A stretch of 64,000 nt of DNA from Pseudomonadota bacterium (GTDB taxonomy: Bacteria > Pseudomonadota > Gammaproteobacteria > Burkholderiales > Ferrovaceae): assembly GCA_021796835.1 (NCBI GenBank), contig JAKABO010000011.1, positions 1 through 64,000 on the forward strand. The letters run 5' to 3'. The notes beneath the pieces are model-generated. The model searched no databases, was not told the DNA's origin, and saw only the letters and a list, made by a program, of their open reading frames with translations. The position numbers and the translations under genes were made by a program. Of this stretch, positions 11,055 to 32,294 are shown piece after piece (positions within the stretch are counted from its first letter, which is position 1; each line of letters opens with the position of its first letter).

Positions 11055-11795
11055 TTACCGGGTAGTATTCGGGACGCGTGTGTTCCCTTCCGTGGTGCGA
11101 GGGGCCGTGGCCAGATAGGTTGCGGCGTCGAGAATATCCTCGTCGCTCAACTTCTTGGCAATGGCACGCATCATGCCGTAAGGATCGTTGGCGCGGCTCT
11201 CATCCCGCCAGTTGTGCAACTGGTTGACCAGATAAGTGAACTTTTGTTCCCCGATGACCGGAAAAACTGGAGCTGCACCGCGACCGTTGTACCCGTGGCA
11301 AGACATGCAGGCCGAAACCTTGCCGCTGACGCCGTATTTGACCAGGATTTCACCCTTGTAACGGGTTCCGATGGGTTGGCCCCCATCTTTGATGGCCTGC
11401 AAATCCGACAATTCCTTGGGGTCAAGAGGAAGGGAATTGACGTAAGCCGAAACATCCCGCCGATCCTGGGGGGTGAGTTGCTGAGCAAACAAAGGCATGA
11501 CTGCCCCTGCCCCCGATGGGGTTCTCCGGCCTTCGGCCAAGTCCGTCAACTGCTTGACGATATAAGGAAAACCGAGATTGTTGAGACGGGGTGCCCCCAT
11601 GGCTTCCGTTCCCCATCCTGTGGCTCCATGGCAGGTCATGCACGCCGGAGCGGCGCCTTTCCCTTCCGTGAAGATCTTTTTGCCGTTGGCTGGGTCGCCG
11701 TTCATGACCCCTTCTTCTTCAGCCAGAGCCGTCATGCTCACCAGAGCCGCGGCCACAGCCAGCCCGGATGTGATCTTAGTGAATGACTTACGCAT
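11055..11795 (-). CDS. diheme cytochrome c4
   Basis: A 246-residue periplasmic cytochrome with a Sec signal peptide (cleavage after MTALA) and two heme c sites, CMTCHG and CMSCHG, in two similar domains (RLNNLGFPYIVKQL and FPVIGEQKFTYLVNQL are the matching helices). This is the cytochrome c4 family. It probably carries electrons between donors such as HiPIP or ACIII and oxidases. It is divergent from the HiPIP gene and ends in a strong terminator, so it is probably a separately expressed electron carrier. It is longer than the c4 at 6468-7088. Confidence 0.9.
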   Translation of the reverse strand: MRKSFTKITSGLAVAAALVSMTALAEEEGVMNGDPANGKKIFTEGKGAAPACMTCHGATGWGTEAMGAPRLNNLGFPYIVKQLTDLAEGRRTPSGAGAVMPLFAQQLTPQDRRDVSAYVNSLPLDPKELSDLQAIKDGGQPIGTRYKGEILVKYGVSGKVSACMSCHGYNGRGAAPVFPVIGEQKFTYLVNQLHNWRDESRANDPYGMMRAIAKKLSDEDILDAATYLATAPRTTEGNTRVPNTTR

Positions 11796-15672: not shown

Positions 15673-15673
15673 C

Positions 15674-16522
15674 ATGTCACTGAGCAATCTGATTCAGAAC
15701 TGGAACTCGTTTCGGACGCGTCGTCCCTATGAGGGGCAGTACGACGATGCCCCCTACAAGTGGGCCATGGTCATCGACCTGGACTCCTGTATCGGCTGTA
15801 ACGCGTGCACCGTTGCCTGTTATGCAGAAAACAATCTGCCTGTGGTGGGCAAGGAACGCTTTGGCAAGGGGCAGGCCATGCACTGGATCCGCATCGAACG
15901 TTACTGGGGGGAGGGGGATACCATGACCTCCGAATTCCCCGATCATGGCGCGCAATACCTGCCCATGCTCTGCCAGCAGTGCGAGGCGGCTCCCTGTGAA
16001 CCGGTCTGTCCCGTCGGTGCCACGCACCACTCGCCGGATGGTCTCAATACCCAGGTGTATAACCGGTGCGTGGGGTCGCGTTATTGTTCGGCCAACTGTC
16101 CTTACAAGGTTCGTTACTTCAACTGGTGGAATTACCCTGATCGGGCCTGGCCCAATCCGCTGGAATTGCAATTGAATCCGGACGTGACGGTGCGGAGCAA
16201 GGGGGTCATGGAAAAGTGTACGTTCTGCATGCAACGGTTGCGCGCGGGGATGGACAAGGCCAAGACCGAAGGGCGTATCCTGGCCGATGGCGAAGTGCTC
16301 ACGGCCTGTGCGCAGGCCTGCCCCACCTCCGCCATCACCTTTGGAAACCTGGCGGATAAAAAGTCCAAGGTGGCCAGAATGTGGAAAAATCAGCAGGTCG
16401 ATCTGGCCAAGGACAGTCAGGAAAAATCCGAGGAGGGGATTCGCGGTTACCGGATTCTGGAAGAGTTGAATACCTATCCGTCCATCGTGTATCTCGAACG
16501 CGTTCGCAATCTCGAGGCTTGA
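15674..16522 (+). CDS. actB2: alternative complex III subunit ActB2 (ferredoxin-like iron-sulfur subunit)
   Basis: The 282-residue protein is the four-cluster ferredoxin domain of the PsrB/DmsB type: CIGCNACTVAC near residue 35, CQQCEAAPCEPVCPVGA, CVGSRYCSANCPYK and CTFC...ACAQACPTSA. In ACIII these are three [4Fe-4S] clusters and one [3Fe-4S] cluster that lead electrons from the quinol site to the hemes. AAGGAG at 15661-15666 sets the ATG at 15674; a longer frame begins inside actB1. It lacks its own signal peptide, so it would be exported together with ActB1, as is usual for such pairs. Confidence 0.93.
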   Translation: MSLSNLIQNWNSFRTRRPYEGQYDDAPYKWAMVIDLDSCIGCNACTVACYAENNLPVVGKERFGKGQAMHWIRIERYWGEGDTMTSEFPDHGAQYLPMLCQQCEAAPCEPVCPVGATHHSPDGLNTQVYNRCVGSRYCSANCPYKVRYFNWWNYPDRAWPNPLELQLNPDVTVRSKGVMEKCTFCMQRLRAGMDKAKTEGRILADGEVLTACAQACPTSAITFGNLADKKSKVARMWKNQQVDLAKDSQEKSEEGIRGYRILEELNTYPSIVYLERVRNLEA

Positions 16523-16566
16523 GTTGACCCGCGCGTTCACGAATACCACCATTCAGGGAAAAAACC

Positions 16567-18030: not shown

Positions 18031-18557
18031 TGAAAAAATCTCATACTCTGGCACTGTATGCGGATATGGATGAAGCGGCCAATGCCCTCAGGGAACTCAA
18101 GTCCTCCGGCATGTCGGGTTTCAGGATGGAGGACGTGGTGGTCAAATCCCCCATCGACCATCCTGAACTGAGCGAGTTGCTGGGCCCTCGTCCCGTCTAT
18201 ATCCAGTGGTTTACCTTGCTGGGGGTCCTGTTGGGCCCCACTACCGGGTTGGTGTTGATTGCGTCTGCCCAGGCCAGTTTCATCTATCAGGTGCGGGGCG
18301 GGCGACCGGTGGTTCCGCTTCCACCGGATATGGTGCTGACCTATGAGCTGTTCATCCTGTCCGGGGTGCTCATGACGGTTCTGGCGACTTTTGTGGCCAT
18401 GAAGTTGCCGGGTAACCGGAGCCCGCTTTATAACGCCAGCGTGTCCGAAGACAAGATCGGTATCCTGGTGAAGGCAGACCCGCAAAGCATTCCTCAGATC
18501 AACGAAATTTTGGGGCGTCACAAGCCTCTCGAAATCATGGGAGACCAAGCACGATGA
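18030..18557 (+). CDS. actD: alternative complex III subunit ActD
   Basis: A 175-residue protein with two central transmembrane helices (about residues 60-85 and 105-127) flanked by soluble parts that include GPRPVYIQWFT and an ending with two alpha/beta-like segments. This is the DUF3341 architecture of ActD, a structural subunit without cofactor. Its start overlaps the actC stop and its stop overlaps the actE start (ATGA). Confidence 0.9.
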   Translation: MKKSHTLALYADMDEAANALRELKSSGMSGFRMEDVVVKSPIDHPELSELLGPRPVYIQWFTLLGVLLGPTTGLVLIASAQASFIYQVRGGRPVVPLPPDMVLTYELFILSGVLMTVLATFVAMKLPGNRSPLYNASVSEDKIGILVKADPQSIPQINEILGRHKPLEIMGDQAR

Positions 18558-19102
18558 AATCCTTTACTCGCTGGATACCCATTCTGGCTCTGGTTCCCTC
18601 GGTCGCCCTGGCATGGCCGTGGAGCAAGGATATGGCCAATCAGATCAGCGTCAAACCCCAGGAGGGGCCGGATGCGGTGCGACCTTTTCCGGAAAATTCC
18701 GTGCCGATGTCCGGAACGCCGACCACCCCTTATGTGCACGATGGGGATGCGGCCATGAATCTGCCCAACCCCAATCCGCCTACTGAAAAGTCGGTGGCTT
18801 ATGGGCGTGAGATGTTCAAGATCTACTGTGTTCCCTGTCACGGAGACTCGGGTACCGGAGATGGCCTGGTAGGCGAGAAACTGATCGTACGCCCCTTTGA
18901 CCTGACGGCCCCCCGGGTTCAGAAGGAAGTTCCCGAAGGCTATATCTGGGGACATATCACCTTTGGCGGGGCGCTCATGCCCTCCTACGGGAATGACATG
19001 TCGCCTTCCGAGCGCTGGGATGTGGTGAATTATGTGCGACATGGTCTGTTGACAGATCCTACCGCCAAAAAACGCGACATGACCACCACCGAAAACAAAT
19101 AA
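18554..19102 (+). CDS. actE: alternative complex III subunit ActE, monoheme cytochrome c
   Basis: The 182-residue protein has a signal peptide (cleavage after VALA) and one heme c site CVPCHGDSG near residue 95, followed by FGGALMPSYGND with the probable Met ligand. This is the class I monoheme cytochrome of ACIII that exchanges electrons with downstream carriers or an oxidase. In many organisms ActE is lipid-anchored; a clear lipobox is not seen here. Its start overlaps the actD stop by four bases. Confidence 0.93.
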   Translation: MKSFTRWIPILALVPSVALAWPWSKDMANQISVKPQEGPDAVRPFPENSVPMSGTPTTPYVHDGDAAMNLPNPNPPTEKSVAYGREMFKIYCVPCHGDSGTGDGLVGEKLIVRPFDLTAPRVQKEVPEGYIWGHITFGGALMPSYGNDMSPSERWDVVNYVRHGLLTDPTAKKRDMTTTENK

Positions 19103-19120
19103 ACCACAAGGAGCCGCGCC

Positions 19121-20125
19121 GTGATTCCATTTGCAAGTTGGTCAGTATTGACCGTGGACTTTCTGATCGTGCTGCACCTATGCCTGGCAGGCGTTGCCCT
19201 GCCTTGCCTGCTGCATCTGGTCAATGCCAAGTGGCGTTATGAAGTTCGCCACATTTCCGTTGCATTCTTTGCCCTGTATCCGCTGGCCGTGATACTTCTG
19301 CTGATCCTGCTGTTTGGGGGGGAAATGACCTTTCCCTGGGCGGGCACCTTCGAGCATCTGCCCAAGTGGAACAACCTGAAGTTTTTGCGGGTACGGGAGA
19401 TCGCCGGCATCATCATCGTGGGGCTGGCTTATGGCGCATTCGTCCGCTTGCAGCGCACCTCTGAAGATTCTCCGGAAAATCTTTCCCGCTTCAAGGCGCT
19501 CGCCGCGGCCATTCCCTTCATCCACGTCCTGTATTGCACCATGGTGGCGTGGGATTTCGAGATGACCCTCTTGCCTCATTGGGAAAGTTCCATGTTTTCC
19601 GTGAACTACATTGTCAGTGTCTCGGGCATGTTCCTGGCTTCCTTCGTGATCCTGCTCACCATTCTCCAGAACACCGGGGTGATCCGGCAAAAGATCCGCT
19701 TCCAGATTTTCAATTATCTGGCGCAGATGATGCTGGGCTTCACCATTTTATGGATCTATACCTTCTTCGGTCAGTACCTCATCATCTGGTACGGCAACAT
19801 TACGGAGGAAACGACCCGCATCTACCAGATGCAGTATGGGGATTACAGTCCGCTGTTCTGGCTGTTCTTTGTGATGAAGTTCATCATTCCCTTCGTGACC
19901 CTGGTTTTCCCCTTCAGTCGGCATAACCCCAGGGTGATTTTCTTCATTGCCTGCGACATCGTCCTGGGCAGCTGGATCGAGCGTTATACCTGGATTTCCG
20001 GTACTTACCCTACGCCGCACTTTCCGATGACCGGCAGTTTTGACATCGGCGTGACGGTGGTGGTGATGGTCACAGCATTCCTGATCGTACGCAGCCGGTT
20101 GAAAAACACCCAGGTGATCAAGTAA
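19121..20125 (+). CDS. actF: alternative complex III subunit ActF (membrane protein)
   Basis: A 334-residue polytopic membrane protein with about nine or ten helices, related to ActC. The segment FFGQYLIIWYGN is typical of ActF. The last helices are preceded by the Arg/Ser-rich SRHNPRV. ActF sits beside ActC in the membrane and may form a second half-channel. It is the last act gene; a ribosome binding site AAGGAG lies upstream of the start codon and a 185-base gap follows before the cbb3 oxidase region. It is somewhat shorter than many ActF proteins. Confidence 0.9.
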   Translation: MIPFASWSVLTVDFLIVLHLCLAGVALPCLLHLVNAKWRYEVRHISVAFFALYPLAVILLLILLFGGEMTFPWAGTFEHLPKWNNLKFLRVREIAGIIIVGLAYGAFVRLQRTSEDSPENLSRFKALAAAIPFIHVLYCTMVAWDFEMTLLPHWESSMFSVNYIVSVSGMFLASFVILLTILQNTGVIRQKIRFQIFNYLAQMMLGFTILWIYTFFGQYLIIWYGNITEETTRIYQMQYGDYSPLFWLFFVMKFIIPFVTLVFPFSRHNPRVIFFIACDIVLGSWIERYTWISGTYPTPHFPMTGSFDIGVTVVVMVTAFLIVRSRLKNTQVIK

Positions 20126-20310: not shown

Positions 20311-20586
20311 ATGCAAAAAAAATCCATCATGTCGCGCGGCTTTTGGTGCATGATCGTCGGCGGAATGCTGACGGGTATGGGCAATGGCAGCGTGTTCGGT
20401 GCAGCCTTGATGTGTTTCCTGGGGCGCGGTGACTTCAATAATTGGGGAGGATGGAACGGTCAGGCCTATGACCCTCACACCTTCACGGGATTCATCGACT
20501 GGTGTATGCTCGTTTTCGGTTTCGCCTACATCGGTATTCTTGCCATCGCCTTTCAACGGCATGATGCCATTGAAAACGCTGCCTGA
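20311..20586 (+). CDS. small membrane protein upstream of ccoN, unknown
   Basis: A 91-residue protein starting at the ATG at 20311, directly behind the ribosome binding site GGGGGGAGGA. A longer frame from 20263 has no such site. It has two hydrophobic segments (about residues 10-33 and 56-76) joined by a Gly/Trp/Asn-rich loop (FNNWGGWNGQAYD). No known cbb3 subunit is recognised. Its position as the first gene before ccoN, with further tiny membrane genes, suggests an accessory oxidase subunit. Confidence 0.65.
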   Translation: MQKKSIMSRGFWCMIVGGMLTGMGNGSVFGAALMCFLGRGDFNNWGGWNGQAYDPHTFTGFIDWCMLVFGFAYIGILAIAFQRHDAIENAA

Positions 20587-20804: not shown

Positions 20805-22211
20805 ATGTTCAAGTACCTATTTGCGCGTAGCGAGGATATTCCGGAGGGATCGGCAGCGGTTTACTTCGGTTTCTCCGCGATTACCTGGTTTGTGATTGGA
20901 ACCGGGCTGGGTGCCTTCAATGCAGCCAAGTTGGCATTTCCTGATTTTGTCACGGGTCTCGAGTTCGTTTCCTTCGGTCACATGCGTCAGGTGCACGTTC
21001 ACGCCGTGATTTTCGGCTGGATTTCCATGGCTTTTGCCATGGCCATGATGTACATGACCCCGGCCCTGGGTAACACCAAGTTGTGGTCGGAAAAGTTGGG
21101 CATCTGGAATGCGTTTCTCTGGAATGTCGGGCTGTCGCTGGGACTGACGCTGTTGTGGTCCGGGATGACCTCGGGGCGGGAATATTCCGACTTCCCCTGG
21201 TTCATCGATCTGTACATTGCGACCTTCATGACCATTCCTTTGGGGATCAATGTCTGGATGACCGTCATTCACCGCAAGACGCAGGGGATCTACACCACCA
21301 ACTGGTTCTTTGCTTCTGCCGTGTTCATGGTCAGCATCGTGTTCATCGTGGGTAACCTGCCCGAGTGGTTCCATCTGACCGGGTTGACTGAAGCCTACCT
21401 GACCTGGTGGTTTGCGCACAATGTGCTGGGTCTGTGGATTACTCCGGTTGCAGCGGCCATTGCCTACTACACCATTCCCAAGGTGACCGGCAATCCGCTC
21501 TATTCACACCGGATCGGCCACCTGCACTTCTGGTCTGTGGTCGTGTTCTACTCCACCCCTGCTGCCCACCACCTGATGTCCGCTCCCCTGCCTGAATGGC
21601 TCAAGTCCTTCGCTTCGGTGGAAGGGGTGTTGATTCTGGTGCCAGCCGTTGCCTTCGTGTCCAACATTCTGTTGACCATGCAAGGGAAATGGAACATGTT
21701 CGTGGAAAACCTGGAAATCCGCTTCACGGTGACCGGCTGTCTGATGGCCATTCCGCTGAACATGCAAGGGGGCTTCCAGCAAACCCGTGCCATCAACTGG
21801 TACATTCACGGGACGGGCTGGATCGTGGCCCATGCCCACCTGGCTCTCCTGGGTTTCTCGACCTTCCTGGAAGCTGCCGCAGTCTACCTGGGTTTGCAAA
21901 CCCTGATGAAGCGTAAACTGTACTCTCTGACCCTGGGGAATCTGCATTTCTGGTTCCTGCTGATCGGATTCACCACCTACTGGGTGTCCATGACCATTGC
22001 CGGATTGATTCAGGGGGCTGGAAAGATTTACGAAGTCCCGTACATCGATGTGGTCATGGCTGAGCATCCCTACATGATTGCGCGCTGGATCGGTGGTTCC
22101 CTGGTGTTCACAGGAAACTGCTTCTGGCTCTACAACATGTGGATGACCGCACGCGCTGGGACGGTGATTCCAGAGGGACGCATGGCCCACGAACTGGCCT
22201 ACGAACGTTAA
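20805..22211 (+). CDS. ccoN: cbb3-type cytochrome c oxidase subunit I
   Basis: The 468-residue protein has about twelve membrane helices and all histidine sites of a cbb3 catalytic subunit: HMRQVHVHAVIFGW (low-spin heme), WWFAHNVLGLW (Cu-B and the Tyr region), STPAAHHLMSAP (Cu-B pair) and AHAHLALLGFST near the C-terminal heme ligands. It reduces oxygen to water at the heme b3/Cu-B centre with high oxygen affinity. A G-rich ribosome binding site (AGGGGGGG) precedes the ATG. ccoO follows after 36 bases. Length is close to the usual 475. Confidence 0.96.
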   Translation: MFKYLFARSEDIPEGSAAVYFGFSAITWFVIGTGLGAFNAAKLAFPDFVTGLEFVSFGHMRQVHVHAVIFGWISMAFAMAMMYMTPALGNTKLWSEKLGIWNAFLWNVGLSLGLTLLWSGMTSGREYSDFPWFIDLYIATFMTIPLGINVWMTVIHRKTQGIYTTNWFFASAVFMVSIVFIVGNLPEWFHLTGLTEAYLTWWFAHNVLGLWITPVAAAIAYYTIPKVTGNPLYSHRIGHLHFWSVVVFYSTPAAHHLMSAPLPEWLKSFASVEGVLILVPAVAFVSNILLTMQGKWNMFVENLEIRFTVTGCLMAIPLNMQGGFQQTRAINWYIHGTGWIVAHAHLALLGFSTFLEAAAVYLGLQTLMKRKLYSLTLGNLHFWFLLIGFTTYWVSMTIAGLIQGAGKIYEVPYIDVVMAEHPYMIARWIGGSLVFTGNCFWLYNMWMTARAGTVIPEGRMAHELAYER

Positions 22212-22247: not shown

Positions 22248-23204
22248 ATGGTCAATTTTAGAGAGTACAAGATCGGAGCGCGGTTTTTCGGTCTTGCCCT
22301 GGGTGGTTCGATGACGATCACCTTGTTTATGCCAAGTTTCGACTTGCGTAATGTGAATGCCACGGAGATGGCGCTGGACAAGCAACTGTGGGCCGGTCAC
22401 GAGTCCGGTTTCAGTCTGGATGATCCTTTCCTGACAGGAGAACATCGACCAGTCCGCGTGACCTTGAAGGTGGACCCGAAAACGGGGCAACCCATGGCGC
22501 CCACGGTCGCCTATGTTTATCCCGCAGGAACGCCCCTTCCCAATGGCGTGGACCACCCCGATAACCTCGGGAACATCGTGGAGCAATTGAGCCGGGACAA
22601 GGGTCGGATCGGTGAGGCGACCAAATCGCAAGGTGCCGTGTTCTTGCTGAGTTCCGAGCCTCAAGGAGATGGTTCCAAGCAGTTTTACATCGAAAATGCT
22701 TCGGCCACCAAGGGCTGGAATCCCGAAGAAGTCATGAAAGCGGCTGGAGATGAAAATACTTACCATGCTTCTTATGGAAAGAGCATTTTCGTGCGTGAAG
22801 GCTGCTGGTGGTGTCATACCCTGCTGCCGGAAGAAACCCAGGATTGGCAAGTGTTTGGTGCCCCTCCCATGTTAGGCGACTTCAATGGAGAATCCCCCAC
22901 CGCCTTTGGTTCTGACCGCAAGGCACCGGATATTCTGCATGTCGGGTCACGCAATTCGTCACGGGAATGGATGATGCTGCACTTCTTCAATCCCCGTCTG
23001 GTCCAGCCTCATTCCATCATGCCCCGTTTCGATTATCTGTGGGGACCGGTTGATGACAAGGGTCAGAAGATTGATTTTGACAAGTGGCGTGCCGAATACA
23101 ACGAGTATGTGGACGGAAAGCGGGTCACTCCGCCGGAAGTTCCCATGTATGCCAGCAATTCCGATGCCCGCGCGTTGATCGACTTCGTTCTGTCGCTCAA
23201 GTAA
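22248..23204 (+). CDS. ccoO: cbb3-type cytochrome c oxidase subunit II, monoheme
   Basis: The 318-residue protein has an N-terminal anchor (residues 12-30) and one heme c site in YGKSIFVREGCWWCHTL, matching the CcoO pattern EGCW.CH. Next comes the conserved HVGSRNSSREWMMLHFFNP and HSIMPRFDYLW segment with the Met ligand, all typical of CcoO/FixO. It passes electrons to CcoN. It is longer than many CcoO proteins (about 200-240 residues) because of an insertion of roughly 100 residues between the anchor and the heme domain (VDPKTGQPMAPTVAYVYPAG). Confidence 0.93.
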   Translation: MVNFREYKIGARFFGLALGGSMTITLFMPSFDLRNVNATEMALDKQLWAGHESGFSLDDPFLTGEHRPVRVTLKVDPKTGQPMAPTVAYVYPAGTPLPNGVDHPDNLGNIVEQLSRDKGRIGEATKSQGAVFLLSSEPQGDGSKQFYIENASATKGWNPEEVMKAAGDENTYHASYGKSIFVREGCWWCHTLLPEETQDWQVFGAPPMLGDFNGESPTAFGSDRKAPDILHVGSRNSSREWMMLHFFNPRLVQPHSIMPRFDYLWGPVDDKGQKIDFDKWRAEYNEYVDGKRVTPPEVPMYASNSDARALIDFVLSLK

Positions 23205-23277
23205 TTATCTGATACCAAACAGACTGCCCTTTTATCTTTGACGGGTATGGGGCAGTCGATAATAAGTGGAGGTCTCT

Positions 23278-23898
23278 ATGAGTAATTGGTCCTTTGATTC
23301 ACCCCTGCGCACCCTTTCTGATGAGGAAAAAGTCCGCAGAGATGAGAAACTGTGGGAGGATGACAACCTGGGTGGCGTGCATGAAGACAACAACCCGGTT
23401 CCCGCGCCTGTGGTCTGGTTGGTTGCTTTGACGGTGGTGACTGCGTTTGCCATTACCTTCCCACTCTGGGGACAACGTCCGACGGCGGCTTTGTATGAGC
23501 CTTACGTCAATTCCATGGACAAGCCCGAAGTTCTGGCTGCCAAGGATGACAAGGAAGCCATGGCCAAGATCGTGGAAATGAACAAGGGGACGCCGAATGA
23601 TGCCTTGCTGGAACGGCATCCCCTGACCATGGATGATCTGCGCATGATTGCCCCACAAATCAAGGCCCTGGAAGCCAAGGGTGCACACATGCATGATTTT
23701 GAAGTGGTGGGCGATCAGGTGGTCACGGCCAACTTCGAAGGGAATTATCGTCCGGATGGATCCCGTATTCGCCAGCAACCCTGGTGGGACAAGGGGTACA
23801 CCATCGATATTTTCTATCTGAGTTACTTCTTTTTGTCAGTATTTACCATGATCAAGCGGTTGCCCCCCACCACGTGGCAACCCAAGCATGATCACTGA
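23278..23898 (+). CDS. CcoP-N-like membrane protein without heme
   Basis: The 206-residue protein occupies the place of ccoP after ccoNO. It has a hydrophilic N-terminus (WEDDNLGGVHEDNNPVP) and one helix ending in FPLWGQRP, the pattern of the N-terminal anchor of CcoP, and a second hydrophobic segment near the C-terminus. It contains no cysteine at all, so the two heme c sites of normal CcoP are missing. GGAGG at 23269-23273 fixes the ATG at 23278. A shorter relative sits at 31447-31887. It probably replaces the structural part of CcoP. Confidence 0.75.
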   Translation: MSNWSFDSPLRTLSDEEKVRRDEKLWEDDNLGGVHEDNNPVPAPVVWLVALTVVTAFAITFPLWGQRPTAALYEPYVNSMDKPEVLAAKDDKEAMAKIVEMNKGTPNDALLERHPLTMDDLRMIAPQIKALEAKGAHMHDFEVVGDQVVTANFEGNYRPDGSRIRQQPWWDKGYTIDIFYLSYFFLSVFTMIKRLPPTTWQPKHDH

Positions 23899-23925: not shown

Positions 23926-24033
23926 ATGATCGATCTGGATTACGGCCCCCTGGCCATTGCTCTGCCCATCAGTATCGCCTTTATTTGTCCGTTTCTCTAT
24001 AGTTTCTTTGTAGATAACTTCGACAAGAAATAA
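23926..24033 (+). CDS. tiny single-helix membrane protein, CcoQ-like position
   Basis: A 35-residue protein (start MIDLDYGPLA, end FFVDNFDKK) with one transmembrane helix and charged tail. GAGGAG lies about ten bases before the ATG. It is the last gene before a strong terminator, so it closes the ccoNO transcript. Small CcoQ/CcoH subunits of cbb3 oxidases have this size and layout, but sequence identity cannot be judged at this length. Confidence 0.65.
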   Translation: MIDLDYGPLAIALPISIAFICPFLYSFFVDNFDKK

Positions 24034-24141: not shown

Positions 24142-24423
24142 ATGATCAATGAAATCCTTCTTCTCGTGACCGCAACGACCTCTGGCAAAATCGATATGAG
24201 TATCGAAGGAATGAGAAGTCAACGGTTCAGCGTGTATATTTTTGTTTTTCTGATGATCGGAATTGCGGTTTTTTCCGGAATCATTTATTCCCTGTTGAAA
24301 GGAAAATATGCGCCTACCAAAATGCGCCTGGGGGAGCGTCTGATGTTCATCGCCATCATTCTGGGCGTGGTGGTGGCCACCGGATTTGGCGCCACACAAT
24401 TGTTGACCGGTTATCTGTTTTAA
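24142..24423 (+). CDS. small membrane protein, unknown
   Basis: An open frame of 93 residues with two hydrophobic segments (about residues 32-51 and 68-88). No ribosome binding site precedes the first ATG at 24142; later ATGs at 24196 (MSIEGMRSQRF) and 24211 would keep both helices, so the true N-terminus is uncertain. It stands between the ccoNO terminator and the CcoS-like gene. No family is recognised. Confidence 0.5.
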   Translation: MINEILLLVTATTSGKIDMSIEGMRSQRFSVYIFVFLMIGIAVFSGIIYSLLKGKYAPTKMRLGERLMFIAIILGVVVATGFGATQLLTGYLF

Positions 24424-24527
24424 TGGGGCTGAACGGCCCGAGTATTTTGAACCTTTGCAGGAAGGACAACTCCAATTCTGGCAAGAGAGTGTTAGAATGA
24501 CCAATGACCTTTATACAGGAGTCTGGC

Positions 24528-24809
24528 ATGGGCAATTACCTTGATACCTTACCCGATGGGTGGACGATCTACCTGTGGCTCGTGGCGGGAGGGCTCATCA
24601 TCGCCGTGAGTATTTATGGCATACGCTGGGGTTCCAAAAACGAACAATTCGACGAAGACATCAAGTATCTGGTGTTCAAGGAAAGCGACAAGGACAAGAT
24701 GAGTCCGGAGGAATATGCCAAAAGTCGCGAGGTGCTGGCAAAACAGGAAGCCCGGCGGGCTGAAGTATTGGCAGAACATGCAGCAGCCAGGACAACCAAG
24801 ACGACATGA
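24528..24809 (+). CDS. CcoS-like oxidase assembly protein
   Basis: A 93-residue protein with one N-terminal helix (about residues 15-33) followed by GSKNEQFDEDIKYLVFKE, which resembles the CcoS/FixS pattern of a helix, Trp/Arg, and then G.FDD.. before a short acidic tail. CcoS is needed for cofactor insertion into cbb3 oxidases. The C-terminal extension is charged and helical (EEYAKSREVLAKQEARRAEV), longer than in standard CcoS. CAGGAG at 24517-24522 selects the ATG at 24528. Its stop overlaps the next start (ATGA). Confidence 0.6.
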   Translation: MGNYLDTLPDGWTIYLWLVAGGLIIAVSIYGIRWGSKNEQFDEDIKYLVFKESDKDKMSPEEYAKSREVLAKQEARRAEVLAEHAAARTTKTT

Positions 24810-25300
24810 AACGGGGTGAATGGGTCGTGCTGGGCCTGATTGGGGCGCTGGCGCTGGCGGGTGTCGTGCAAAATATCATCCATCATGAAAAAGGTGCCCA
24901 GGACGTCGATCGTGGCCTGCCTTTTTATACGACGGCCACACCGGAACTGGCACGGGAAGGGTCGGATTTGATCCGGCAGAATGACTGCCGTCAGTGCCAT
25001 TCGCTTTGGTCCGTTCGCAATGTCATGCAGTCGGTTCCTTCCCCTTCACTGGATGGCATGGGCGATTTACGGAGTGAGGCCTGGCTTTACCAGTATCTCT
25101 CCTCCCCACACCCCCAGGCTATTTTACCCAGCCGCCTCAAGCCCGAGTATCGGATGCCCTCCTTTGCCTCGCTGCCCGAACAGGAAAGAAGGACACTGGC
25201 CCATTATCTGGCCAGCCTGCATGTCAAGGACTGGTATCTGGATGACATCAAAAAGAGTGAATATGAAAAACTCACGGGGAAGGATGACTACAAAAAATGA
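24806..25300 (+). CDS. membrane-anchored monoheme cytochrome c
   Basis: The 164-residue protein has an N-terminal hydrophobic anchor (residues 5-23) and one heme c site, NDCRQCHSLW, near residue 61. Met-containing segments follow (EYRMPSFASL). It is translationally coupled to the CcoS-like gene before it and to the membrane protein after it (ATGA overlaps at both ends). Because the nearby oxidase has no heme-bearing CcoP, this cytochrome is a candidate electron donor or third subunit; that role is inferred. Confidence 0.8.
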   Translation: MKRGEWVVLGLIGALALAGVVQNIIHHEKGAQDVDRGLPFYTTATPELAREGSDLIRQNDCRQCHSLWSVRNVMQSVPSPSLDGMGDLRSEAWLYQYLSSPHPQAILPSRLKPEYRMPSFASLPEQERRTLAHYLASLHVKDWYLDDIKKSEYEKLTGKDDYKK

Positions 25301-25806
25301 CGGAAGCAGTCCCACAGGAAAAAGATACGGGTAAGTGGGGGCGGGCGCTGATCGGGTTGGGCGTCGCCTCTGCCATCAATCACTTTGGGGACCGTCTGCT
25401 GGGTGTCACCATCGAAGTTTTTACAAGCGCGCTGGATTATTTTTCTTTTCGGTGGATGCTGGATGTTTTTCTGGTCCCCATGGTGGCGAACTTTTTCCTG
25501 GCGTTGATTTTTGGCAAGGGAAGTAAATGGTTGTGCTATGCCACTCCCTTGATCGTCCGGGGCATCAGTTATTTCAATGTGGCGGAAATTACCGGAGTAC
25601 CGGAGTATGGCCATCTGATTCCTTTGGGGTGGTGGGGATTCTTCATCATTCTGGCCATGGAAACCGGCATGGTGGGAGCGGTGCTTGGTGAAGCCATGAT
25701 CAAACGTTATTACGGACGCAAGACCGTCGAGATGGTCTATCAGGAGCGTCTGGCCCGAGAAGAACGTCAACGCCAGCGTCGGCGCGCGCAAGAACCCAAG
25801 GAGTAA
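25297..25806 (+). CDS. membrane protein, unknown
   Basis: A 169-residue protein with three or four hydrophobic segments (about residues 18-33, 50-72, 80-90 and 108-132) and a highly charged C-terminus (EERQRQRRRAQEPKE). The start overlaps the stop of the cytochrome gene. No family is recognised. It is conserved in neither sequence nor position with a standard cco gene that I know. Confidence 0.6.
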   Translation: MTEAVPQEKDTGKWGRALIGLGVASAINHFGDRLLGVTIEVFTSALDYFSFRWMLDVFLVPMVANFFLALIFGKGSKWLCYATPLIVRGISYFNVAEITGVPEYGHLIPLGWWGFFIILAMETGMVGAVLGEAMIKRYYGRKTVEMVYQERLAREERQRQRRRAQEPKE

Positions 25807-25809
25807 ACG

Positions 25810-26868
25810 GTGGCACTTTCCCCTAAAATACCGTCCACTCCGGAAGAACGGCTCAAACGTAAAAAAATCCTGTCCGCCACCCTGGTGACCTGTATTGGTA
25901 TCGTCATGATCGGCAGTTCGTTGCATGTCATCAAGTTGGGGCAAGGGCGCATGGAGGATATGCGTCATCTGGTGTCCTACAACATCAAGGACTCCGACAG
26001 CCATATTCGTGCAGCGGGTGAGGACATTCAGTTACATGCGCAGCACGAGAGTGGACAGGTCAAGGGCAGTTATACGGTGGAAGAGGCCGACCGCCTGTTG
26101 AATCGCGAGCAATGGGAAAATCTGAACACGATGGTGACCATTCCGGCGGGACCTTTTTTGATGGGGACCAATCTTGATCGTGGCGATCCACCCGACAAGC
26201 CGGAACATAAGGTGGATCTTCCGGCTTACGCCATCGATAAATATCCTGTCACCAACGCGCAATATGCCCGTTTTGTGGCGGCCACCGGACATCGTCCTCC
26301 GCTCAACTGGAAGGATGGGCGGATTCCGCCGGGGGCGGCGCTGCTGCCCGTGACCCTGGTGACCTGGTACGACGCCAATGCCTATGCCAAATGGGCCCAT
26401 AAGCGACTGCCCACGGAAGCCGAGTTTGAAAAGGCCGGGCGAGGTACGGATGGGCGCCGTTGGCCCTGGGGGAATACCATGGATCCGACCAGATTGAACA
26501 CTTATTACAACCGCAATTCCCCGTCGCCTGTGACCGATTATCCCCAGGGGGCCAGTTCTTACGGGGTTTTTGATTTGTCCGGTAACGTGGACGAATGGAC
26601 AAGCAGCGATTTTGCACCTTATCCCGGATCCATTGCACCGACCATCGTGTTCCAGGGCAAGGTGGCGGTCCAGGAATCTTCCCAGGATCGTAACCTGGGG
26701 ATTTCCGATCAAAAACTGATCAAGCGCAGTTACAAGGTGCTTCGTGGGGGGTCCTGGAAAAGCGATCCCTTTTCCACCTCTCTTTTTCACCGCGATAATG
26801 CTTTTGCCAACATGACTTCCGATTTCTATGGATTTCGCTGTGCCAGTTCCCTTCCTTCCTCTCACTGA
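25810..26868 (+). CDS. membrane-anchored FGE-sulfatase-domain protein
   Basis: The 352-residue protein starts with GTG at 25810 (AAGGAG just before the upstream stop). A hydrophobic segment at about residues 20-38 anchors it, and the sulfatase-modifying-factor (FGE) domain follows from about residue 110: IPAGPFLMGTN, KRLPTEAEFEKAGRG, GNVDEWTSSD and LRGGSWKSD. The cysteine pair that serves copper-dependent catalysis in true formylglycine-generating enzymes, after RGGSW, is absent, so it is unlikely to be an FGE. The domain may bind a partner or a ligand. It sits inside the oxidase region, as does the paralogue at 33799-34575. Confidence 0.85.
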   Translation: MALSPKIPSTPEERLKRKKILSATLVTCIGIVMIGSSLHVIKLGQGRMEDMRHLVSYNIKDSDSHIRAAGEDIQLHAQHESGQVKGSYTVEEADRLLNREQWENLNTMVTIPAGPFLMGTNLDRGDPPDKPEHKVDLPAYAIDKYPVTNAQYARFVAATGHRPPLNWKDGRIPPGAALLPVTLVTWYDANAYAKWAHKRLPTEAEFEKAGRGTDGRRWPWGNTMDPTRLNTYYNRNSPSPVTDYPQGASSYGVFDLSGNVDEWTSSDFAPYPGSIAPTIVFQGKVAVQESSQDRNLGISDQKLIKRSYKVLRGGSWKSDPFSTSLFHRDNAFANMTSDFYGFRCASSLPSSH

Positions 26869-27121: not shown

Positions 27122-27510
27122 ACTTTCCTGGTCTTTTGGGATATCGTTGGACGGGACATCTATTGGCCGGGGTGATGCTCATCCTGGGACTGGCGTTCTT
27201 TCGACCGGCACTGGCCGCGTCGGATGCCCCGCAAAACCCCAATGCCGTCCAGATGATGGAGGCATTTCAGAAACAGCAAGGGGACAAGGACGATGGGGTG
27301 ACGCCGGTGGATGACCACAAGAAAAAAATCATCATGTTCATCATGGGGGTCCCGCTCATCCTGATGGTTCTGGTGACGGGGGTTCTGGGCATCGGCATGG
27401 GCATCTATGGCAAACCCTGGTTCGTTCCCCACATGATCATGGCGGGATTGACCATGACCCTGGCCCTGGTCCACGCCATCGTGGGGGTGGCCTGGTTCTT
27501 TCCCTTTTGA
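27118..27510 (+). CDS. three-helix membrane protein with two spaced histidines, unknown
   Basis: The 130-residue protein has a signal-like first segment (to about residue 33, AALAAS), a charged hydrophilic stretch and two helices (about residues 71-93 and 103-126). In the last helix two histidines (residues 105 and 119) are 14 apart, the spacing of the two heme ligands on one helix of cytochrome b. This is suggestive only, since a partner helix with matching histidines is not visible. ATGA and TTGA overlaps couple it to both neighbours. Confidence 0.6.
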   Translation: MNFPGLLGYRWTGHLLAGVMLILGLAFFRPALAASDAPQNPNAVQMMEAFQKQQGDKDDGVTPVDDHKKKIIMFIMGVPLILMVLVTGVLGIGMGIYGKPWFVPHMIMAGLTMTLALVHAIVGVAWFFPF

Positions 27511-30131
27511 ACACCTTCCTGATTCCGGCCCTGTACGGTTTGTCGGGCCTGGTGGGACTGGCCTATGAAGTTCTGTGGGTCCGCATGGTGACCCTCCAGT
27601 TTGGTCTGAGTGTCTTTGGCGTGGTCATTACGGTGGCCGCATTCATGGCGGGACTGGGGTTGGGCGCCTTGGCATTGTCCGGCCGCATCGTTCGACGCCC
27701 TTTGTGCCTGCTCGCCCTCCTGGAGGCGAGCGTGGCCCTCTTCTCCGCCCTTTTGCCTTTCTTGGCCCCCCTTGAAGAACATGCGCTTTGGGCGGGGTTT
27801 TCTCATCAAGGTGCGCTGGGTTGGCATTTGGGACTGGCCCTGATCTCTTTTCTCCTGCTGACCCTGCCCGCCGTGGCCCTGGGGGCCGGTTTTCCTCTGG
27901 TCCTGTCGCTCGGCCAACAGGTCTCCGGACGCCTGGGACTGCTGTACGGGGTCAATACGCTGGGCGCCGTGCTGGGCGCCTTGCTTCCCCTGGTTCTGCT
28001 GCCGATGTTTGGCTGGGTCCAGGCGTTGCGTGGAATCGCTCTGCTGGGTGCTTTGCTGGGAGTCGGGTGGTGGGTGCTGGATCGTCTCGAAGGGGGCTCC
28101 TCTGCGTTCGTTCAGGACCGGGGGGCGTGGGTGACCACGGATCGATCCGAAAGAACCGGTTCGATGCTTCTGTTTTTTTATGGAATCCTGGGGATGGCCA
28201 GCCTTTCCCTGGAAGTGGCCTGGACCCGGCTCTTCGGACTGTTGTTTCTGCGTACCGAGTATGTTCTGGCCTTGATTCTGGCTTCCTTTCTGGTGGGAAT
28301 CGGGTTGGGCAGCCTGGTGGCGACCCGCTGGCATTCCACGCTCCGACGATTCAGGGCGGCATTTCCATGGCTGGCGGCTGGCGGTGTCCTGGCAGGACTG
28401 GCCGTGTTGCCCATAGTGGCGGGGTGGGTCGAACATCCGCTGGGTCAGACCCTGACGCAGGCGCTTCTGCTGCAGGGGCTGATCCTGACCGTGCTCACTT
28501 TTCCGGTGACTTTCGTCCTGGGGTTATGGCTTCCTCTTCTGAGCGAAGAGCAGGGCAGTCTTCGGACCGGGGTGGAACTGTACGGAGCCAATTCGTTGGG
28601 AGGCGCCTTGGGCGCGTTGCTGACGGGTTTTGTCTGGATCCCCTGGCTGGGAACCACCGGAACCCTGGTCTGGAGTGCGCTGCTGATTCTGGGCGCCAGT
28701 CTGACCTGGACCCGTCCCTGGACGTTGCTGCAAGGGGGGATGATGGTGGGTTTTGTGGGGTTGGGGGCGGGACTCTGGGCCTTTCCGCCGGCACAGAAAT
28801 TACTGCCGGAAACGCTGGCTGGAAGTCGGGATATCTATCGTTATGAAGATGCCGTGGCCATGACCCAAGTGGTGGAACAACCCGATGGGCAGCGGATCCT
28901 CCTCACTGACCTGCAACGTCACGATGCCTCCTCGGACCCCACCGCGGCTTTCGTGCAACGAAATCAGGGACGTCTGGCCCTGTTGCTGCAGGGCCATCCC
29001 CAACGGGTGCTGTTTTTGGGACTGGGTACCGGGTTGTCCCTGGCTGGAAGTTCGGCATATCCCGGCGTGCGGCGGGTCGCTGTGGAATTGTCGCAGGGGT
29101 CCATCGAAGCGGCACGCCGTTACTTTGCGCCCGTGGATGGTCCGATCCTGAGCGAAACCGAACTGATTCAGGATGATGCCCGGCATTTCATGAATTCCAC
29201 GGAAGTCCATTATGATGTCATTGTGGGCGATCTCTACCATCCTGACCTGGCTGGCGTGGGCGCTTTGCTCTCCCTGGAACAGTTTGCGCGGGTACGGAAT
29301 CATTTGTCGGCCCATGGGGTGTTCGTTCAATGGTTGGCCTTGAACCAATTCGATCCTGCCGCTCTCCAGGTGGAGTTGAGAACCTTCCGGCGCGTATTTC
29401 CCGATGCCTGCCTGTTTCTGGATGGGATGCATCTGGCGTTGGTGGGGTTTCGTCAACCCTGGGCGGGTTGGCCCACGGTGGTGGCAGGTCAGGATCGCCT
29501 CAGCCCGGATCAACGGTTTGAAGCCACGGGCGGCGAGGGGGTGATGACCTGGATGGGGCGCTACTGGGGTAAAATTCCCGATACGCCGGGTCCCGTCCAG
29601 AAAGAGTGGGCACCGGTGATCGATTTTTCCCTGCCCCGACTGAAATATAGCGGTGGCACCCTGGATGTGATGTTGGCGACCCTGTGGCATCAACGGCCTT
29701 CCCTGGAGCAGGCGGCACGGGATCTGAATCTGCCCGAACGCCAGAATCCGGAATTTGCTGCCGCCTGGCATGCCACCCAATATCTGGTACAAAGTTGGCA
29801 GGATCGCATGACGGGGCGCGACGGTGAAGCCGAACGTCTGGTTCGCCTGGCGTTCGAGGCCAATCCGCGGGATCGCTGGGTGGGTTATGCGCTGGCCGAT
29901 GAGGTTCTGGCCCAACTGGCCCGTGCACCGCTGCCCGATGCCCAGAAGGAAACGGTGCTCAACAAACTGGCGCTTCGTTTTCCCTGGCATGTGGAGGTGC
30001 AAAGAGCGCTTTGGAAAATACAAAGGGAGCGCCATGAATACGCAGAAGCCGAAAAGACCCGTCTGAACCTGTTGCAGGAAGCGCCCCTTGACCGGGAAGC
30101 CGGAATGGCGAAGAATGAAAGTTTTCAGTAA
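27507..30131 (+). CDS. fused polytopic membrane / spermidine-synthase-like protein
   Basis: An 874-residue protein with about 12-14 hydrophobic segments in residues 1-430, in two halves, followed by a spermidine-synthase-like Rossmann domain: RVLFLGLGTG, then VAVELSQGSIEAARRYF, then DDARHFM and DVIVGDLYHPD. The C-terminal 150 residues are helical and TPR-like. Proteins of this layout are found as fused membrane/spermidine synthase-like proteins; the substrate is not established, and the aminopropyltransferase residues are only partly kept. TTG at 27507 overlaps the upstream stop. It joins the oxidase region to ccoG. Confidence 0.8.
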   Translation: MNTFLIPALYGLSGLVGLAYEVLWVRMVTLQFGLSVFGVVITVAAFMAGLGLGALALSGRIVRRPLCLLALLEASVALFSALLPFLAPLEEHALWAGFSHQGALGWHLGLALISFLLLTLPAVALGAGFPLVLSLGQQVSGRLGLLYGVNTLGAVLGALLPLVLLPMFGWVQALRGIALLGALLGVGWWVLDRLEGGSSAFVQDRGAWVTTDRSERTGSMLLFFYGILGMASLSLEVAWTRLFGLLFLRTEYVLALILASFLVGIGLGSLVATRWHSTLRRFRAAFPWLAAGGVLAGLAVLPIVAGWVEHPLGQTLTQALLLQGLILTVLTFPVTFVLGLWLPLLSEEQGSLRTGVELYGANSLGGALGALLTGFVWIPWLGTTGTLVWSALLILGASLTWTRPWTLLQGGMMVGFVGLGAGLWAFPPAQKLLPETLAGSRDIYRYEDAVAMTQVVEQPDGQRILLTDLQRHDASSDPTAAFVQRNQGRLALLLQGHPQRVLFLGLGTGLSLAGSSAYPGVRRVAVELSQGSIEAARRYFAPVDGPILSETELIQDDARHFMNSTEVHYDVIVGDLYHPDLAGVGALLSLEQFARVRNHLSAHGVFVQWLALNQFDPAALQVELRTFRRVFPDACLFLDGMHLALVGFRQPWAGWPTVVAGQDRLSPDQRFEATGGEGVMTWMGRYWGKIPDTPGPVQKEWAPVIDFSLPRLKYSGGTLDVMLATLWHQRPSLEQAARDLNLPERQNPEFAAAWHATQYLVQSWQDRMTGRDGEAERLVRLAFEANPRDRWVGYALADEVLAQLARAPLPDAQKETVLNKLALRFPWHVEVQRALWKIQRERHEYAEAEKTRLNLLQEAPLDREAGMAKNESFQ

Positions 30132-30154: not shown

Positions 30155-31450
30155 ATGAATGGGGCATTGGCACAGGTCTCGCGTTTTCATCTGCACCGTC
30201 GCATGGTCCAGGGAACTACCCTCCTGTTGGTCATTCTGGTGCCGGCCCTGGGGCTGTTTCGCATCGATCCGCGCGCCGGTGCCCTGGTCGTGCTGGATCG
30301 TCAGATCTGGTTCGCCGACTTCTTTCTGATCGCCGGACTGTGGATCATCCTGCTCAGTCTCCTGGTGATGCTCTATTCCACGGCGGGCACCGTATTTTGC
30401 GGGTGGGTATGTCCGCAGAACATTTTTTCCGAATGGGCCAATTACATGACCCATCGGCTGTTGGGCAAACGGGCCGAAGTCAGTCTGGACGGCCAGGCGC
30501 CGGTCATCGCCCCGGCCAAGAATCGGGTGTGGAACTGGGTGTTGCTGGGCCTCTCCTTCCTGCTGGCGTCCATGTTCCTGGGCGTGATTCCCCTGTTCTA
30601 TTTTTATGACCCTTCCACGATCCTGGCTTTTCTTCTCTGGCGGTCGGACCCTGCGCTGGCCAGTTCCCTGCATTGGATTTATGCGGTTTTTGTTTTGATC
30701 ATTCTGGTGGATATTGCGGTGATCCGCCACTTCTGGTGCCGTTTTGCCTGCGTGTACCGGGTTTGGCAGCACAGTTTCCGGACCCGTGAAACCCTTCATG
30801 TGCGTTATGACGCCAGCCGTGCCAGTGCCTGCGAGAAATGTAACTATTGTGTGACCTCCTGCTTCATCGAGATCGATCCGCGCAAGACGGACGTCTATGA
30901 CAGTTGCATCAATTGCGGCGAGTGTATCGATGCCTGTAACCGCCTTCAGGCGAAGAAAGGGAATCCGGGATTGCTGAGTTTTGAATTCGGCGAACATAAA
31001 ACCAAACGGGAGGCGCGGATTCACTTTCGCAACAACGCGGTCGGCCTGACTTCGCGCACCAGTTGGATGGCTGTCGTCATGATCCTGGGGCTGAGTTTTT
31101 TTGCCTGGGGATTGTGGACCTGGGAACCTCTTCATCTGGCCGCATACCGGGCCGAGGTGCAGGATGCTGCGAACGATCTGGATTACCGCATCGAAATCGC
31201 CAATAAACGTTACCGTCCTGAAACGGTGGAATTGTCGGTGCAGGGGTTGAAGCCGGGCGAGTATCATTTGTCCCGGACGCAACTGACGATTCCTGCGGCA
31301 GGGCGGCTGTCCGCGATCTTGTCCATCTCGCCGGCCCTGCCCCATGGCGTGCATTCCTTCAGAATTCTGGCCCGTGCCGTTCAGGAGAATTGGACCGACC
31401 AGTTTGCCATCCAGCATTTTTCAGAAGCCCCCAAAGGGAGGACTCCATGA
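30155..31450 (+). CDS. ccoG: cbb3 oxidase accessory iron-sulfur protein CcoG (RdxA/FixG)
   Basis: The 431-residue protein has an N-terminal membrane domain with VFCGWVCPQN, several helices, two ferredoxin-type [4Fe-4S] motifs (CEKCNYCVTSC and CINCGECIDAC) and an immunoglobulin-like C-terminal domain, the complete CcoG architecture. CcoG is implicated in reducing copper for insertion into cbb3 oxidase. AGGGAGG precedes the ATG. The heme-less CcoP-N-like gene follows with an ATGA-type overlap. A second ccoG is at 51659-52858. Confidence 0.93.
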   Translation: MNGALAQVSRFHLHRRMVQGTTLLLVILVPALGLFRIDPRAGALVVLDRQIWFADFFLIAGLWIILLSLLVMLYSTAGTVFCGWVCPQNIFSEWANYMTHRLLGKRAEVSLDGQAPVIAPAKNRVWNWVLLGLSFLLASMFLGVIPLFYFYDPSTILAFLLWRSDPALASSLHWIYAVFVLIILVDIAVIRHFWCRFACVYRVWQHSFRTRETLHVRYDASRASACEKCNYCVTSCFIEIDPRKTDVYDSCINCGECIDACNRLQAKKGNPGLLSFEFGEHKTKREARIHFRNNAVGLTSRTSWMAVVMILGLSFFAWGLWTWEPLHLAAYRAEVQDAANDLDYRIEIANKRYRPETVELSVQGLKPGEYHLSRTQLTIPAAGRLSAILSISPALPHGVHSFRILARAVQENWTDQFAIQHFSEAPKGRTP

Positions 31451-31887
31451 ATCAAACCCGTGAACCCGCGCCACCCCTGAGCGAGATTCAACCAGAATGG
31501 GGGCAACGAGACAAGGAACATTTCGGCTATGCGTCCGATGAGGAACGAAAGGCCAAGCGAGGATTGGAGGACTGGGAGTTGTTGGAGAGTGTTCCTTTAT
31601 CCCAGAAACCCGTGCCGTACTGGTTTTTTGCCGTGATCGTGGTGGTTTTGCTGGTGGCGGTCGGGCTCGCCTTTCCTTTTTGGGGAACGCGTTCCGGACA
31701 CCAGAAGCACTGGTTGGACTGGGGGTTTTTATTGGCGCTGGTATACATCGCGGGCGCTGGAACCTTTGTGTACTTCATGGTCCGGATGTACGGGGCTGCC
31801 CATCCCGGGCCATCGGAGGCGGTTTCTCAGAACGGAAAGGATCCTGCCGAAACCCAACCTCAAAAAACCACCGATGAAGTACGTTGA
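31447..31887 (+). CDS. CcoP-N-like membrane protein without heme (second copy)
   Basis: A 146-residue relative of the 23278-23898 protein. It has an acidic N-terminus and a helix ending in AFPFWGTRSG (compare ITFPLWGQRP), then a second helix (about residues 90-112) and a hydrophilic tail. It contains no cysteine. AGGGAGG before the ATG at 31447 decides the start. Placed right after ccoG and before a FixH-like lipoprotein, it looks like an oxidase-linked structural protein. Confidence 0.68.
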   Translation: MNQTREPAPPLSEIQPEWGQRDKEHFGYASDEERKAKRGLEDWELLESVPLSQKPVPYWFFAVIVVVLLVAVGLAFPFWGTRSGHQKHWLDWGFLLALVYIAGAGTFVYFMVRMYGAAHPGPSEAVSQNGKDPAETQPQKTTDEVR

Positions 31888-32275: not shown

Positions 32276-32294
32276 GGTTCCGGCAAACCTAGTC
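32270..32294. terminator. inverted repeat spanning two convergent stop codons
   Basis: GACTAGG (32270-32276) pairs with CCTAGTC (32288-32294) around eleven bases. Each arm contains the TAG stop of one of two converging genes. There is no T-run, so a bidirectional terminator is only possible. Confidence 0.4.

What the first reader, a model, noticed from the sequence alone, without database searches (positions are those of the whole stretch)
22248..23898. cbb3 oxidase without a heme-bearing CcoP
The gene after ccoO encodes a CcoP-N-like anchor (NNPVP, then FPLWGQRP) with no cysteine, so no heme c can be bound. No diheme CcoP is visible in the window. A second heme-less relative is at 31447-31887. 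Standard cbb3 enzymes use CcoP as electron entry; here another cytochrome (24806-25300 or CcoO itself) would have to take over.
Basis: partly seen in the sequence, partly recalled or inferred. Interest (0 to 1): 0.7.

Follow-up and report, generated by a model that had tools for sequence, protein, structure and literature searches.

The report
Iron-oxidizer oxidase with heme-less CcoP
A breathing enzyme used by iron- and nitrite-oxidizing bacteria has replaced its usual electron-receiving subunit with a stripped-down version that carries no heme, which suggests that one job has been split between different parts.

Summary
The gene after ccoO (23278-23898) has no Cys and no heme site. The 99.5%-complete Ferrovum-like genome has no diheme CcoP. 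The protein is a short relative of the CcoP N-terminus: its FixP_N score is sub-threshold here, but 12 of its orthologs in other genomes pass the Pfam cut-off. It is no local oddity. It belongs to a conserved locus in Ferrovaceae, Gallionellaceae, Ca. Nitrotoga, Mariprofundaceae and gammaproteobacterial MAGs. In 150 genomes of the Nitrotoga family it occurs in exactly the 45 that carry the unusual long CcoO; 28 of those lack a diheme CcoP. The anchor keeps a Glu (58 of 59) in register with the CcoP Glu known, by recall, as the proton entry. CcoN keeps all metal ligands but lost two recalled K-channel residues. A membrane monoheme cytochrome (24806-25300) and an unannotated 35-aa membrane peptide (23926-24033) follow. 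Most likely CcoP's jobs were split: anchoring and proton entry stayed, electron entry moved to the monoheme cytochrome and CcoO. The missing subunit III was already printed for Ferrovum JA12 (PMC4725956); the heme-less stand-in appears new within my searches.

The parts
20311..20586 (+). 91-aa small membrane protein upstream of ccoN, no family
   Evidence: tblastn hit in 71 of 80 loci; no Pfam/NCBIfam hit
20805..22211 (+). ccoN, catalytic subunit of the subtype; all heme/CuB His and the cross-link Tyr kept, recalled K-channel Ser240->Gly and Tyr317->Ala, and Glu323->Gln (P. stutzeri numbers)
   Evidence: COX1 E 2.4e-75; 3mk7 CcoN E 8.2e-62; residues in 88 subtype sequences
22248..23204 (+). 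ccoO, monoheme subunit with a ~100-aa extra alpha/beta domain between TM helix and heme motif
   Evidence: FixO E 1.3e-16; CxxCH at median residue 183 in 88 full-length subtype CcoO against 66-92 in 6 canonical; AlphaFold model pLDDT 84.1 with CcoO chains as the five best Foldseek rows
23278..23898 (+). heme-less CcoP-like anchor: cytoplasmic N-end with Glu36, TM helix, helical domain, beta hairpin, second TM helix
23926..24033 (+). unannotated 35-aa single-TM peptide gene directly after the anchor
   Evidence: 77 of 77 loci with enough sequence; 78 of 81 by a stricter pattern; Asp5, Pro22, Asp30 invariant; codon-position differences 15:2:46 to five close relatives; no convincing family hit
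24142..24423 (+). 93-aa two-TM protein
   Evidence: 75 of 80 loci
24504..24809 (+). CcoS/FixS-like assembly protein, sub-threshold
   Evidence: FixS 14.2 bits, cut-off 23.1; 75 of 80 loci
24806..25300 (+). membrane-anchored monoheme cytochrome c, candidate electron-entry subunit; start overlaps the preceding stop
   Evidence: Cytochrom_C E 1.6e-7; one CxxCH in 28 of 28 aligned, axial Met in 26 of 28; at the expected place in 75 of 80 loci; FixO hits in 17 of 28
25297..25806 (+). multi-TM protein of unknown family
   Evidence: 70 of 80 loci
25810..26868 (+). FGE-sulfatase-domain protein within the cluster
   Evidence: E 1.3e-54; 73 of 80 loci
27507..30131 (+). fused MFS/spermidine-synthase-like protein
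   Evidence: NF037959 E 3.7e-19; 63 of 80 loci
30155..31450 (+). CcoG-like accessory protein
   Evidence: TIGR02745 E 2.9e-39, below its cut-off; 58 of 80 loci
31447..31887 (+). second heme-less two-TM protein with a FPFWGxR motif
   Evidence: profile comparison E 4.5e-6 with the anchor family; 56 of 80 loci
11055..11795 (-). diheme cytochrome c, probable soluble donor (Cyc1/c4 type by recall)
   Evidence: Cytochrom_C E 2e-17, two stretches; homologs in 35 of 80 loci within the fetched flank

Best explanation
This is the terminal oxidase of a distinct cbb3 subtype in which CcoP's tasks are divided. SHOWN: CcoN and CcoO of this type are accompanied by a heme-less protein with a CcoP-like N-terminal segment, and most such genomes, the own one included, have no diheme CcoP. 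INFERRED: the anchor sits where CcoP's helix sits, stabilises CcoN-CcoO, and its Glu36 offers the cytoplasmic proton entry, as the equivalent CcoP Glu does. INFERRED: electrons enter through the co-encoded membrane monoheme cytochrome (24806-25300), fed by a soluble diheme cytochrome, then pass to the CcoO heme, heme b and the b3-CuB site. The extra CcoO domain may fill the docking surface left by the CcoP heme domains.
For: Own genome without CcoP. Anchor and long CcoO in the same 45 of 150 family genomes, 28 of these without CcoP. In other sets CcoP is absent from 42 of 63 and 34 of 50 anchor genomes. Conserved order ccoN-ccoO-anchor-peptide-...-monoheme cytochrome across classes. CcoN 75-78% identical between Ferrovum and the loci of other classes fetched, yet only 29-32% to canonical CcoN. 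Glu36 in 58 of 59 anchors, in register with a Glu kept in 19 of 19 canonical CcoP, the second Glu of GIEE in the solved CcoP chains. PMC7876108 passages: cyt c2 cross-links more to CcoO (8) than to CcoP (1), so CcoO offers a docking face. Recalled, not read: a V. cholerae cbb3 with CcoP cut down to its helices assembles and works with artificial donors.
Against: No biochemistry. The FixP_N match of this protein itself is below the cut-off, and profile comparison with canonical CcoP from these genome sets is not significant (E 0.087). Two recalled K-channel residues of CcoN (Ser240, Tyr317) are lost in all subtype sequences that cover them, so proton entry at Glu36 may not continue along the usual path. 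The monoheme cytochrome is closest to another cytochrome of the cluster, not to CcoP or CcoO. The anchor's periplasmic domain gave no convincing fold match.
Confidence: 0.5

Rival explanations
1. No replacement subunit exists: the soluble diheme cytochrome docks on CcoO directly, and the membrane monoheme cytochrome serves assembly or another route.
For: Diheme cytochrome homologs in 35 of 80 loci; CcoO has an added domain; published models name Cyc1 as partner of the cbb3 oxidase (PMC8788666, PMC5513912; passages read).
Against: The monoheme cytochrome is in the same gene run in 75 of 80 loci and overlaps the preceding gene.
Confidence: 0.25
2. The anchor is an unrelated accessory protein whose NNPVP segment only resembles CcoP by chance.
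For: Window protein below the FixP_N cut-off; comparison with canonical CcoP not significant; second TM helix and helical domain have no evident CcoP counterpart.
Against: 12 orthologs over the curated cut-off in one set and 5 in another; FixP_N is the only family hit repeatedly (40 of 59); same gene position and Glu register.
Confidence: 0.15
3. In Ferrovum the oxidase is fed inside a supercomplex by the adjacent alternative complex III, whose monoheme subunit (18554-19102) replaces CcoP.
For: act genes lie directly upstream in the window and in 13-14 of 80 loci.
Against: The other loci keep the same oxidase without act genes in the fetched flank.
Confidence: 0.06
4. A CcoP made elsewhere in the genome joins this CcoNO.
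For: A canonical ccoP exists in 21 of 63, 16 of 50 and 17 of 45 anchor genomes.
Against: It is absent from the own genome and from the majority; in the six fetched cases ccoP sits in a stretch with its own ccoN and ccoO.
Confidence: 0.03

Closest known systems
Canonical cbb3 oxidase ccoNOQP (P. stutzeri 3mk7, R. capsulatus 6xkw)
   Same: CcoN fold and all metal ligands, CcoO monoheme domain, CcoG-like accessory gene, CcoP-like N-terminal segment with Glu
   Different: no diheme CcoP; CcoN only ~30% identical to canonical CcoN of the same genome sets; K-channel substitutions; ~100-aa domain in CcoO; extra membrane monoheme cytochrome and 35-aa peptide
'Distal' cbb3 form of iron oxidizers (Ducluzeau 2008 subtree, cited in PMC8788666, PMC7029218, PMC10734462)
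   Same: found in the same organism groups, said to differ from the proximal form in subunit composition
   Different: identity of this locus with the distal subtree was not tested; no passage I read mentions a heme-less CcoP
cbb3 cluster of Ferrovum JA12 (FERRO_02570/02560; PMC4725956)
   Same: subunits I and II without subunit III; co-localised c-type cytochromes proposed as substitutes
   Different: the passages read do not mention the heme-less CcoP-like gene or the peptide
Engineered V. cholerae cbb3 with CcoP cut to its helices (recalled, Ahn et al. 2015, not read)
   Same: CcoNO plus heme-less CcoP membrane part
   Different: artificial and, by recall, inactive with its native cytochrome c4; here natural and accompanied by another cytochrome

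Membership tests
C-family (cbb3) heme-copper oxidase | CcoN with six His ligands and a helix-VII Tyr | tested here: met
   all ligands aligned and conserved
C-family (cbb3) heme-copper oxidase | monoheme CcoO | tested here: met
   FixO E 1.3e-16, one CxxCH
C-family (cbb3) heme-copper oxidase | diheme CcoP subunit | tested here: not met
   none in own genome
C-family (cbb3) heme-copper oxidase | K-channel residues (Ser240, Tyr317; recalled) | tested here: not met
   Gly in 87 (one gap) and Ala in 88 of 88 subtype sequences; Ser and Tyr in 6 of 6 canonical
CcoP/FixP | FixP_N domain over curated cut-off | tested here: inconclusive
   window protein 14.5 bits against 24.9; 12 orthologs over it
CcoP/FixP | two CxxCH heme sites | tested here: not met
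   0 of 59 homologs with CxxCH
CcoP/FixP | Glu six residues before the last Pro of the NPxP motif | tested here: met
   58 of 59 anchors; register, with the canonical Glu
Ducluzeau 'distal' cbb3 subtree | position of CcoN in that tree | not tested
   paper not held
C-family (cbb3) heme-copper oxidase | O2 reduction with high affinity by the purified enzyme | not testable with these tools
   needs biochemistry

The most novel reading that the evidence does not exclude
Iron- and nitrite-oxidizers of several proteobacterial lineages share an unrecognised cbb3 subfamily with a natural heme-less CcoP, a 35-aa membrane peptide, an added CcoO domain and a rerouted proton path (Ser240Gly, Tyr317Ala, Glu323Gln throughout), so that electron entry and proton entry are carried by different subunits and pumping may be tuned to high-potential, low-energy donors.
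Probability: 0.35. Interest if true: 0.75.

Novelty: new variant of a known kind. Interest (0 to 1): 0.57.

Why it matters
cbb3 oxidases are thought to end the respiratory chain in many microaerophilic iron oxidizers and in Ca. Nitrotoga, where genome papers describe them as high-affinity proton pumps. If this subtype lacks CcoP and part of the K-channel, electron entry and pumping stoichiometry cannot be copied from P. stutzeri, and energy budgets of iron and nitrite oxidation need a measured value. A natural heme-less CcoP also lets one separate CcoP's structural, proton and electron roles.

Tried and rejected
Trans-acting CcoP: rejected for the own genome. Anchor as a decayed cytochrome domain: the model (pLDDT 78.7) gave no PDB match at E<=0.001 and none with Z>=5, so neither supported nor excluded. 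PDB sequence search with the anchor profile: only unrelated rows with E>1. PDB search with the monoheme cytochrome profile: no match at E<=0.01. The monoheme cytochrome as a CcoO duplicate: best match is the other cluster cytochrome (E 3.4e-22), canonical CcoO only E 2.3e-5, so I do not claim it. Second anchor as FixP_N member: only 3 of 33; its profile comparison with canonical CcoP was not significant either (E 0.18). The ORF at 31874-32275, called ccoH in my scripts by position, has no family hit, so I do not claim it as CcoH. Literature: searches and the passages read found no mention of a heme-less CcoP; subscription papers and supplements were not seen, so priority is not established.

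Row choices: A2 uses 58 of 80 named loci plus the window; A3 32 of 56 hits plus the window; A4 27 of 77 hits plus the window; A5 19 of 20 CcoP loci (one gave no ORF by my pattern); A7 62 of 74 usable CcoO plus the window; one search took 50 of 80 loci, leaving out many Ferrovaceae already covered and some others. The 88 subtype CcoN include one contig twice (L117 and L197). Counts of relatives are not phylogenetically independent; the Fisher value ignores that.

Full report
WHAT IS THERE. Its nearest named matches include Ferrovum myxofaciens P3G (anchor protein 97% identical). ccoN (20805-22211), ccoO (22248-23204) and the gene in question (23278-23898) follow each other on the + strand. The third protein has no Cys. 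It matches FixP_N, the N-terminal domain of CcoP, at 14.5 bits, below the cut-off of 24.9.

NO DIHEME CCOP. In the own genome FixP_N has no match at E<=0.001 and only the anchor itself at E<=0.1. The ccoP model TIGR00782 gives 11 matches, best 35 bits against a cut-off of 180. The genome has four COX1 matches: this ccoN, a 687-aa open frame on C54 (a bo3-type subunit I by recall), and two short C-terminal fragments.

IT IS A CONSERVED SUBTYPE. Homologs of the anchor were found in 22 of 61 genomes of the relatives set, in 42 of 398 genomes sampled from the phylum (a few of these only as fragments or weak hits) and in 83 named loci, of which 80 were kept: Ferrovaceae, Gallionella-type MAGs, Ca. 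Nitrotoga, Mariprofundaceae and gammaproteobacterial MAGs. Group f62 is Mariprofundaceae by inference, because contig G203:C122 has the length and hits of the named contig of L117. By tblastn in the 80 loci the anchor and ccoO were hit in 80, ccoN in 77, the CcoS-like gene in 75, the FGE-sulfatase gene in 73 and the CcoG-like gene in 58. The monoheme cytochrome was hit in 77, of which two are its paralogue upstream. Loci are cut by contig ends and 10-kb flanks. Loci fetched from Mariprofundaceae and two other-family genomes show the same order, with ccoN 75-78% identical to the window's. Six canonical clusters fetched from genomes of the same sets have a CcoN that is only 29-32% identical.

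CO-OCCURRENCE. In 150 genomes of the family of Ca. Nitrotoga fabula (Gallionellaceae by recall) the anchor occurs in 45, and the long CcoO matches at E below 1e-69 in exactly the same 45. A canonical CcoP occurs in 106 of the 150: 17 of the 45 anchor genomes and 89 of the 105 others. Among the 63 anchor genomes have a canonical CcoP (68-86 bits) and 42 do not; of the 36 that are at least 90% complete and at most 5% contaminated, 10 have it. Among 50 genomes behind named loci 16 have it. The Ca. Nitrotoga genomes tested had no FixP_N match at E<=0.001.

IS IT CCOP-LIKE? For: 40 of 59 aligned homologs hit FixP_N at E<=0.1, best 3.9e-5, and no other family hits more than two. Twelve orthologous genes are over the curated cut-off and five. 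Against: this protein itself is below the cut-off, and profile comparison with 19 canonical CcoP gives only E 0.087, though in the expected register. In that register Glu36 of the anchor (58 of 59) meets a Glu kept in 19 of 19 canonical CcoP, the second Glu of GIEE in the solved CcoP chains shown. From memory this is Glu49 of P. stutzeri and V. cholerae and Glu25 of R. sphaeroides, reported as the entrance of the proton path; those papers were not read. The AlphaFold model (pLDDT 78.7) has helices 43-63 and 173-193 that fit membrane spans, with a helical domain and a hairpin between. No solved fold matched convincingly.

OTHER CHANGES IN THE ENZYME. CcoN keeps the six His ligands and the Tyr in every subtype sequence that covers them, apart from one unreadable residue. 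At positions that I recall as the K-channel, Tyr223, Asn289 and Thr293 (P. stutzeri) are kept, but Ser240 is Gly and Tyr317 is Ala; Glu323 is Gln; six canonical sequences have Ser, Tyr and Glu. There are 101 fixed differences between the two groups. CcoO carries its heme motif at median residue 183 against 66-92 in canonical CcoO. The added part is predicted with high confidence as an alpha/beta domain. The five best Foldseek rows for the whole CcoO model are cbb3 CcoO chains, though none reaches E 0.001. The added domain was not searched alone.

A NEW SMALL GENE. Directly after the anchor lies a 35-aa single-TM ORF (23926-24033), below the size limits of the ORF lists used. Every locus with enough sequence had a small membrane-like ORF there (77 of 77); a stricter sequence pattern finds it in 78 of 81 sequences including the window. 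Asp5, Pro22 and Asp30 are invariant. Differences to five close relatives fall 15:2:46 on codon positions 1, 2 and 3, as expected for a translated gene. It has no convincing family hit. I infer a small subunit comparable to CcoQ or CcoM.

WHO TAKES THE ELECTRONS? The product of 24806-25300 is a membrane-anchored monoheme cytochrome; CxxCH is in 28 of 28 aligned homologs and the axial Met in 26 of 28. It overlaps the preceding gene. Its closest relative is the cytochrome at 10381-10959 (E 3.4e-22). Similarity to CcoO is weak but recurrent (FixO in 17 of 28). A diheme cytochrome (11055-11795) is a plausible soluble donor; passages of PMC8788666 and PMC5513912 link Cyc1 to the cbb3 oxidase. I therefore favour donor -> monoheme cytochrome -> CcoO -> CcoN, with CcoO as a possible direct entry. 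This step is inference.

WHAT IS ALREADY KNOWN. The JA12 genome paper (PMC4725956, passages) states that only subunits I and II of the cbb3 oxidase were found and that a co-localised c-type cytochrome could substitute subunit III. Other papers report proximal and distal cbb3 forms, said to differ in subunit composition (PMC8788666; also PMC7029218; PMC10734462). The Nitrotoga paper describes a predicted proton-pumping cbb3 without comment on CcoP in the passages read (PMC6050957). None of the passages mentions a heme-less CcoP. The missing CcoP is therefore known, while the stand-in, its Glu, the 35-aa peptide, the CcoO domain and the K-channel substitutions appear undescribed within my searches (listed under Tried and rejected).

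VERDICT. Observation confirmed; interpretation supported and widened. A new variant of a known kind, with a testable division of labour.

Noticed in passing
window 9869-10378 (-) and 32289-32861 (-): Two short (169 and 190 aa) proteins that match only the C-terminal part of heme-copper oxidase subunit I and keep its HxH heme-ligand motif (His64/His66 and His59/His61, 95% or more conserved); short-ORF homologs in 46 and 53 of 99 sequences scanned. The first pairs with a monoheme cytochrome (10381-10959). Function unknown.
   Followed up: partly
window 25810-26868: A formylglycine-generating-enzyme (FGE-sulfatase) domain protein inside the oxidase cluster, conserved in 73 of 80 loci; its role there is unexplained.
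   Followed up: no
genomes G559, G520, G621, G501, G535, G568: FixO domain inside open frames of 1013-1055 aa in six genomes of the Nitrotoga family, suggesting fused cbb3 subunits as reported for Nitrospina (PMC3578206).
   Followed up: no
window 12823-20125: Alternative complex III genes directly upstream of ccoN; seen next to this oxidase in only 13-14 of 80 loci.
   Followed up: partly
G023:C85:13299-13436 (L182): One of the 22 anchor-bearing genomes also has a canonical ccoNOP cluster; contamination not excluded.
   Followed up: no
window 27507-30131: Fused MFS/spermidine-synthase-like protein within the oxidase cluster in 63 of 80 loci.
   Followed up: no
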